Of a stretch of 64,000 nt of DNA, positions 38,856-43,289 are shown one piece after another. A program made the position numbers and the translations under genes. Source of the stretch: Ferrithrix thermotolerans DSM 19514 (GTDB lineage Bacteria; Actinomycetota; Acidimicrobiia; Acidimicrobiales; CAIXPF01); the NCBI GenBank assembly GCA_945906305.1, contig CAMDQT010000005.1:62001-126000 (forward strand), given 5' to 3'. The notes below the pieces were generated by a model. That model saw only the letters and a program-made list of their open reading frames with translations, was not told where the DNA came from and did no database searches. Numbering within the stretch: position 1 is the first letter of the stretch; each line of letters begins with the position of its first letter.

Positions 38856-39254
38856 TTACGCCAGCCGGTGGAACTCGTCGGCACCAGCGAGGACGGCGCC
38901 CCACACGTCACCGTCGCTGCCCGCAGATTGCACCGGTCGAGCCAGGTGCCACAGGCTGACCAGCTGTTCGCCGCTCTCGTCGAGCACATGATGGCCAGAC
39001 CAGGACCCCACCGAGCCGTGGGGGCTGAAATCCACCGCGAAGGCGAAGGCGTCGCCCACCGCGAAGCCATGAAGCGCATAGACCCGATCGGGGTACGGGC
39101 TTGCCGCCCCCGAGCGGAACGTGCCCAGCAAGGCGTGGCCGCCAGGCTCCGCTTCAAGCTGCACAATGGACCCGAGCCAGTTCTGCCACCGACCGACGAG
39201 TGTCGTGGGGCCACTCAGCACCTGCAAGCCCCGCAACTGTGTTTCGATCGCCAT
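38856..39254 (-). CDS. Avidin/streptavidin-family (biotin-binding-like) protein without signal peptide
   Basis: The 132-residue protein fits the avidin barrel from end to end: GRWQNWLGS, LLGTFRSG, FAVDFSPHGSVGSWSGHH, LVSLWHLARP and DVWGAVLAGADEFHR. Streptavidin biotin contacts map as Asn23 to Asn25, Ser27 to Ser29, Tyr43 to Phe46, Ser45 to Ser48, Trp79 to Phe76, Ser88 to Ser81, Trp92 to Trp85, Trp108 to Trp102, Leu110 to Leu104, Trp120 to Trp118 and Asp128 to Asp126; Thr90 becomes Gly83. The Trp-to-Asp spacing (8) is exact. Unlike known secreted avidins it starts directly (MAIETQL) with no signal peptide. GGAGGAGC immediately precedes ATG 39254 and decides the start. A family member is likely; biotin binding is inferred. 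Confidence 0.85.
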   Translation of the reverse strand: MAIETQLRGLQVLSGPTTLVGRWQNWLGSIVQLEAEPGGHALLGTFRSGAASPYPDRVYALHGFAVGDAFAFAVDFSPHGSVGSWSGHHVLDESGEQLVSLWHLARPVQSAGSDGDVWGAVLAGADEFHRLA

Positions 39255-39444
39255 GAGCGCTCCTCCGTCTGTCTGCTCTGATCCTGCCTTGGAACGGTCC
39301 GGATTTGAAGGGGCCATGGTCCCCCTCGAATCGACGCCCACCGCCCCGACGCGACCGGCCAACGCTGACCACGGGCCGAACTGCAAAAATGGCACCGCGC
39401 CGGGTCCCGAACAGCTCGGGTCCCGGCGCGGGCAGAACCATCGA

Positions 39445-42116: not shown

Positions 42117-43289
42117 ATGCGGGTGCGGATCTTTCTCGGGGTTGCCACCGTGGCTGCGACTGTCGCCACGTTGGGGGTGTTGGTGTCAGGTGGGCCAGTC
42201 CAGTCCCTACACCTGCTGCGCACCGTCGTCCCGATACATCGCTTGGTGCCGGCCACGGACTCCGCGGCCGCCGGAAGAGAAATCGAGACTCCCCCAACCA
42301 CGGCGGCCTTGGCGGCATCCTCGCAGCACGAACGTTCGATTACTGACTCATGCCGCGGGGCCGAGGACGCCGTGGCCTCGCTCGGCCCGTATCCGGCGGC
42401 CGGAACGAACGCCGAGGCGGAGCAAAGCACCGGCGCCGAAGCTGACCCGCTCGACGGTGACACGGCGGCTTCCGAGCGCTGGAGCATCATCAACACCGAG
42501 GGCGACATCGACGCATCGGACCGGGCCGACTACGAGCAGATGGCGCTCGCCCACCAGGGCGAAGGGGGGCCCGAACCGCTGGTACTGCGCTGGACCACGG
42601 AGATAGTCGGCTCGCCCGTGGTCGAGCTCGAAGAGGTCGCCTGCGTCGCCGCGGCCGCCTACCGTGACCCCCGAGGCTGGAACCTCGACGGAGCGATCAT
42701 TTTCGAACGCGTCGAGACCACCGAGGAGGCCGACTTCGTCTTGGTGTTGGCCGAAGCGGTCTACGTGCCCGACTTCTCCGATTCGTGTCTGCCCTGGCTG
42801 ACAGGTCTTCCCGACGCGAGCTGCACGGTGGGCAACTACGTGATCATCAACGACCTACGCTGGCGGGACGGCGCGCTGGGCGATCCCATTCCGCTTGAGG
42901 TGTTCTGGATCCACGAGATCAACCACGAGACTGGCCACTGGCTGGGTCAGGGCCATTTCAGCTGTCTAGGCGGTGTCGCGGCGGTCAACCAGCAGCAATT
43001 CCGTTCCCTGGACGGCTGTAGCGCCAACACCTGGCCACTGGAGTTCGAGAGGGCCATGGTCGCCGTCCGATTCGGGCTGTGGCCCTCAGTGGGCGCGTAC
43101 GAGCCTTACGACGAACTGGGCTGGTACAGCGGCGAGGAGTCCACCGACATCTTCGACGAGTACGAAATGGATGAGCCCGAGTACGAGTACGAGTACGAAC
43201 CCGAACCCGAACCCGAACCCGAACCCGAACCCGAACCCGAACCCGAACCCGAACCCGAACCCGAACCCGAACCCGAACCGACGGACTGA
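42117..43289 (+). CDS. Secreted DUF3152-like zinc metalloprotease-fold protein with Glu-Pro repeat tail
   Basis: A 390-residue protein with an N-terminal signal or anchor (MRVRIFLGVATVAATVATLG). A low-complexity Ala/Thr/Glu region runs to about 120, followed by a domain with the metzincin-type signature H270-E271-x-x-H274-x-x-G277-x-x-H280 (HETGHWLGQGH). An overlapping HExxH (266-270) precedes it. The domain looks like actinobacterial DUF3152. The C-terminus is first Glu/Tyr-rich (EYEYEYE), then 14 Glu-Pro dipeptides (361-388), which may extend into or through the cell wall. Protease activity is inferred from the motif only. Confidence 0.75.
   Translation: MRVRIFLGVATVAATVATLGVLVSGGPVQSLHLLRTVVPIHRLVPATDSAAAGREIETPPTTAALAASSQHERSITDSCRGAEDAVASLGPYPAAGTNAEAEQSTGAEADPLDGDTAASERWSIINTEGDIDASDRADYEQMALAHQGEGGPEPLVLRWTTEIVGSPVVELEEVACVAAAAYRDPRGWNLDGAIIFERVETTEEADFVLVLAEAVYVPDFSDSCLPWLTGLPDASCTVGNYVIINDLRWRDGALGDPIPLEVFWIHEINHETGHWLGQGHFSCLGGVAAVNQQQFRSLDGCSANTWPLEFERAMVAVRFGLWPSVGAYEPYDELGWYSGEESTDIFDEYEMDEPEYEYEYEPEPEPEPEPEPEPEPEPEPEPEPEPEPTD
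43197..43280 (+). repeat. Hexanucleotide tandem repeat (GAACCC)x13 plus GAACCG, encoding 14 Glu-Pro units
   Basis: Fourteen six-base units fill 84 bases just before the stop codon of the secreted protein. Because the unit is two codons, gain or loss of units changes tail length without frameshift. Such perfect repeats are prone to slippage. Confidence 0.95.

What the first reader, a model, noticed from the sequence alone, without database searches (positions are those of the whole stretch)
38856..39254. Cytosolic avidin-like protein in an actinobacterial genome
The deduced 132-residue protein aligns with streptavidin and avidin over the whole barrel and keeps nine of twelve biotin-contact positions (Asn25, Ser29, Ser48, Ser81, Trp85, Trp102, Leu104, Trp118, Asp126), with Phe at two aromatic positions and Gly for Thr90. 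The strongly placed GGAGGAGC site fixes a start with no signal peptide, whereas the avidins known to me are secreted or egg-white proteins. An intracellular biotin binder would compete with biotinylated carboxylases or could act as a biotin store, sensor or defence protein. It stands between a TPP decarboxylase and an amidohydrolase, with no biotin genes nearby, so its role is unexplained.
Basis: partly seen in the sequence, partly recalled or inferred. Interest (0 to 1): 0.78.

Follow-up and report, generated by a model that had tools for sequence, protein, structure and literature searches.

The report
Leaderless bacterial avidin in lake Acidimicrobiia
The gene really encodes an avidin-family biotin-binding protein with no export signal, but roughly half of known bacterial avidins have no predicted signal and cytoplasmic fungal avidins are already known, so this is a new divergent family member of uncertain role rather than a first intracellular avidin.

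Summary
The minus-strand ORF 38856-39254 (132 aa) matches Pfam Avidin at E 1e-12, twice the curated cut-off. It keeps nine of twelve classical biotin contacts; the exceptions are Phe46 (Tyr43), Phe76 (Trp79) and Gly83 (Thr90). All four genomes held for its genus carry it (60-79% identity) under purifying selection, with the same start codon. Every avidin found in its class (13 genomes, eight genera) starts with no hydrophobic leader, and three have an in-frame stop just upstream. "Cytosolic" is therefore well supported as a prediction.

The claimed surprise is weaker. A 2021 survey reports predicted signal peptides in only about half of bacterial avidins. The fungal tamavidins are cytoplasmic avidins that poison grazers. 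What remains is a divergent, leaderless subfamily (own genus plus one distant genome) with altered pocket residues.

Its role is not shown. The genus lacks BioB and BioY, but BioB absence is the majority state in the class, so auxotrophy is no evidence. One other avidin in the class lies beside the biotin transporter gene bioY; this single case is a lead only. I favour cytosolic biotin sequestration, either as an anti-grazing antinutrient or as a biotin buffer. New member of a known kind.

The parts
38856..39254 (-). Leaderless avidin-family protein, 132 aa, ATG at 39254, stop at 38856-38858
   Evidence: Pfam PF01382 E 1e-12; PDB avidins; purifying selection
39260..39266 (-). Shine-Dalgarno GGAGGAG, five bases before the ATG
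   Evidence: Read directly; purine-rich site at about the same place in relatives
39204..39254 (-). N-terminal extension, residues 1-17 (pattern M[AT]IExQL), not a signal peptide; conserved within the genus
   Evidence: highest 9-residue hydropathy mean 1.31 against 2.91 for the streptavidin leader

Best explanation
This is a genuine avidin-family beta-barrel made without an export signal, so it most likely stays in the cytosol and binds biotin there, probably as a dimer or tetramer. The most likely way it acts is sequestration: it holds free biotin in a tight, hard-to-digest complex, so that protists eating these planktonic lake bacteria are deprived of the vitamin, as the cytoplasmic tamavidins do to nematodes and amoebae. 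Shown: family membership, conservation, start site, absence of a leader. Inferred: fold, biotin binding (about 0.75), cytosolic location (about 0.9), anti-grazing role (about 0.35). The confidence given here is for 'leaderless cytosolic biotin-binding avidin', not for the role.
For: Avidin profile match over the whole barrel. Nine of twelve contacts are kept, among them Asn25, Ser29, Ser48, Ser81, Asp126 and three pocket tryptophans, identical in all four genus members. The top 50 PDB structure matches to the predicted model are all avidins, probability 1.00. Present in 4 of 4 genus genomes with low dN/dS. All 13 avidins found in the class start without a hydrophobic leader. Cytoplasmic tamavidin is toxic to nematodes and Acanthamoeba and harmless to the producing E. 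coli (PMC6238071). The two relatives with titles are Acidimicrobiia MAGs whose isolate names (ErkenSummer, RH-23may17) suggest lake plankton.
Against: Trp79 to Phe and Thr90 to Gly may weaken binding, and G970, a relative in another family, also lacks Trp120. Model confidence is low (mean pLDDT 67.6, last strand drawn as a helix). There are no expression, abundance or grazing data. A leaderless protein could still leave the cell by lysis or an unknown route.
Confidence: 0.7

Rival explanations
1. Cytosolic biotin store or buffer. The cells cannot finish biotin synthesis, so a moderately tight avidin captures imported biotin and releases it for the biotin ligase; the weakened pocket (Phe for Trp79, Gly for Thr90) would make release possible.
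For: No BioB above cut-off and no BioY in any of the four genus genomes, while biotinyl/lipoyl carrier domains are present. In G042 the leaderless avidin lies tail to tail with bioY, 117 bases apart (L012 9409-9978 + and 10096-10530 -), in a genome without BioB. Adjacency by chance is roughly 2 in 2,600 genes.
Against: BioB is missing from 284 of 395 class genomes, so auxotrophy is the majority state. G374 has both avidin and BioB. BioY is beside avidin in one locus only, in convergent orientation, found after the fact; no BioY in the other avidin loci examined. Avidins usually release biotin very slowly (general knowledge).
Confidence: 0.25
2. Secreted avidin: an export route without a classical leader, or an upstream start that adds one, making it an extracellular antibiotic like streptavidin.
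For: The ORF stays open upstream to a GTG at 39395, and the 47 added residues include a mildly hydrophobic run.
Against: That run peaks at 1.37 against 2.91 for the streptavidin leader; the upstream frame is broken by gaps in relatives; G042, G916 and G970 have in-frame stops just upstream of the leaderless start.
Confidence: 0.08
3. Avidin-like barrel that no longer binds biotin and binds another ligand or has a structural role, as the fibropellins do.
For: Long stem branch of the subfamily (1.41 changes per site); Trp79, Thr90 and Tyr43 changed, and Trp120 lost in G970.
Against: The other nine contacts are identical in all four genus members; the changes put no bulky charged residue in the pocket, the kind of change shown to abolish binding (PMC8033661).
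Confidence: 0.2

Closest known systems
Bacterial avidins (streptavidin, rhizavidin, shwanavidin, agroavidin, burkavidins)
   Same: Avidin profile, most biotin contacts, single-domain size
   Different: 29-36% identity to streptavidin, chicken avidin and the avidins of other lineages in the class; Phe for Trp79, Gly for Thr90; conserved 17-residue N-terminal extension; no C-terminal tail; Acidimicrobiia are not named in the main text of the 2021 survey
Tamavidin 1 and 2 (Pleurotus cornucopiae)
   Same: Avidin family by sequence match; described as cytoplasmic (PMC6238071)
   Different: Fungal; binding and anti-grazer toxicity measured there, not here
Leaderless Streptomyces plasmid avidin (NZ_CP109361, WP_266656289.1)
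   Same: Actinobacterial and starts directly at the barrel (MPIDGEWYN), with no room for a leader
   Different: Keeps Trp79 and Thr90; carries a streptavidin-like C-terminal tail

Membership tests
Avidin family (PF01382) | Profile score above the curated cut-off over the full domain | tested here: met
   48.9 bits against 24, profile 2-116 of 116
Avidin family (PF01382) | Eight-stranded up-and-down barrel | tested here: inconclusive
   Low-confidence model from three sequences (67.6), C-terminus drawn as helix; nevertheless the top 50 PDB matches are all avidins
Avidin family (PF01382) | Biotin-contact residues | tested here: met
   9 of 12 identical to streptavidin; Tyr43 to Phe, Trp79 to Phe, Thr90 to Gly
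Avidin family (PF01382) | High-affinity biotin binding | not testable with these tools
   Needs purified protein
Tetrameric (strept)avidin type | Intersubunit tryptophan (Trp120) | tested here: met
   Trp118 here and in all four genus members; Ser in G970
Tetrameric (strept)avidin type | Tetramer in solution | not testable with these tools
   No multimer modelling available; needs gel filtration
Secreted avidins | N-terminal signal peptide | tested here: not met
   No hydrophobic core by hydropathy; SignalP itself not available

The most novel reading that the evidence does not exclude
Leaderless avidins of Acidimicrobiia serve the producer's own biotin economy, as an intracellular store or buffer linked with import in cells that cannot make biotin; the pair with bioY in one lineage would be the first genomic link between an avidin and biotin uptake that I know of.
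Probability: 0.2. Interest if true: 0.6.

Novelty: new member of a known kind. Interest (0 to 1): 0.32.

Why it matters
The natural job of bacterial avidins is unsettled, and most discussion assumes secretion. A class whose avidins all appear to lack an export signal, with the gene kept under selection throughout one genus, gives a clean system to ask whether cytosolic avidin protects against grazers or buffers the cell's own biotin. A divergent pocket (Phe for Trp79, Gly for Thr90) could also give a naturally reversible biotin binder.

Tried and rejected
Chance ORF or wrong start: rejected by profile score, dN/dS and start conservation. Biotin auxotrophy as evidence of function: rejected, because BioB is absent from 284 of 395 class genomes. 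Conserved functional partner: none across lineages; the TPP enzyme / amidohydrolase neighbourhood is shared only inside the genus, and is absent in G395; a CLC channel gene flanks it in one other genus only. Phage or mobile origin: no avidin found in the phage records or viral contigs; plasmid avidins exist in Streptomyces, Burkholderia, Xanthomonas, Rhizobium and others but are distant. A first region request failed on length, and one alignment query was too diverse to scan with.

Full report
The open frame lies on the minus strand, 38856-39254, and gives MAIETQLRGLQVLSGPTTLVGRWQNWLGS...DEFHRLA, 132 residues. Pfam gives Avidin as the only family, E 1e-12, 48.9 bits against a cut-off of 24, over the whole profile. 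The same search over 14 control genomes finds none. Sequence comparison with the PDB gives only avidins at significant E-values. An AlphaFold model from three sequences is poor (mean pLDDT 67.6, C-terminus drawn as a helix), yet the top 50 PDB structure matches are all avidins with probability 1.00.

Asn25, Ser29, Ser48, Ser81, Trp85, Trp102, Leu104, Trp118 and Asp126 match streptavidin Asn23, Ser27, Ser45, Ser88, Trp92, Trp108, Leu110, Trp120 and Asp128. Phe46 replaces Tyr43 (Tyr in G395), Phe76 replaces Trp79, and Gly83 replaces Thr90. My expectation, from general knowledge of streptavidin mutants, is that binding is kept but weaker; this was not measured.

All four genomes held for the genus have the gene; two genomes of sister genera do not. 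Searches that drew from the class and the order found avidins in 4 of 395 and 11 of 397 genomes, 13 distinct genomes in eight genera. The distribution is patchy, but the gene is fixed in this genus as sampled, with dN/dS about 0.14-0.16 between the window and its two nearer relatives and 0.29 against G395. Two relatives carry titles: Acidimicrobiia MAGs ErkenSummer_bin-0525 and RH-23may17-548; I infer lake plankton from the isolate names.

Start and export. In all four genus members the protein begins M[AT]IExQL, with a purine-rich site before it. Single-base gaps within about 75 bases upstream of the ATG break the frame between the window and its nearer relatives, so the longer GTG-started ORF is unlikely to be used. 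In the other lineages G042 has an in-frame TGA four codons before its GTG start, and G970 and G916 also have in-frame stops shortly upstream. None of the 13 has a leader by this measure, though start codons of the other lineages were chosen by me and not tested. SignalP was not available.

What is known. Laitinen and others (PMC8033661) surveyed bacterial avidins in Actinobacteria, Proteobacteria and Bacteroidetes, and found predicted signal peptides in about half. They also suggested reduced browsing by predators for aquatic bacteria with avidins. PMC6238071 describes the fungal tamavidins as cytoplasmic, toxic to nematodes, Acanthamoeba and Drosophila, and harmless when tamavidin 1 is made in E. 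coli and Ashbya. A Streptomyces plasmid encodes an avidin starting MPIDGEWYN, again without a leader. An avidin without an export signal is therefore not new.

Tree. The four genus sequences and G970, from another family, form one supported group (99/98) on a long stem (1.41), with G916 beside it (93/93). This group shares Phe at Trp79; the four genus members have Gly at Thr90 and G970 has Ala. It is a divergent subfamily.

Context and role. Neighbours in the window are a two-gene TPP enzyme, a limonene-epoxide-hydrolase-like protein, a glyoxalase-family protein and a CMD-family protein on one side, and an amidohydrolase and an enoyl-CoA hydratase on the other. The same order recurs in G227 and on the part of the contig held for G396, but not in G395. 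An enoyl-CoA hydratase gene on the opposite strand sits between avidin and amidohydrolase in G227, which argues against one operon. No partner is shared across lineages.

The genus has neither BioB above cut-off nor BioY, so it probably needs external biotin. But BioB is absent from 284 of 395 class genomes, so this says little. In G042, bioY ends 117 bases from the end of its avidin gene, tail to tail. Chance adjacency is about 2 in 2,600, but it is one case seen after the fact. I rank sequestration in the cytosol first, with anti-grazing use somewhat more likely than a biotin store because the former has a measured precedent in the tamavidins. Neither is shown here.

Noticed in passing
L012 9409-9978 (+) and 10096-10530 (-): In another order of the class (genome G042) a leaderless avidin gene lies tail to tail with bioY, the biotin transporter gene, in a genome without BioB.
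   Followed up: partly
window 42117-43289 (+): DUF3152 protein with a metzincin-like HETGHWLGQGH motif and a C-terminal (EP)n tail coded by 14 perfect copies of a 6-base repeat (43196-43279).
   Followed up: no
L010 about 540-690; window about 39310-39330: Short repeated GTCGATTCGG-type motifs upstream of the avidin start in G396 and G227, and a near-palindromic GGGGACCWTGGCCCC also present upstream of the gene in the window.
   Followed up: no
L025, L026, L027: In genus g470 the avidin gene sits next to a CLC chloride channel gene fused to CBS and TrkA_C domains (Pfam checked for L025 and L027).
   Followed up: no
class-wide: BioB is missing in 284 of 395 genomes of the class searched, so biotin auxotrophy looks like the majority state there.
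   Followed up: partly
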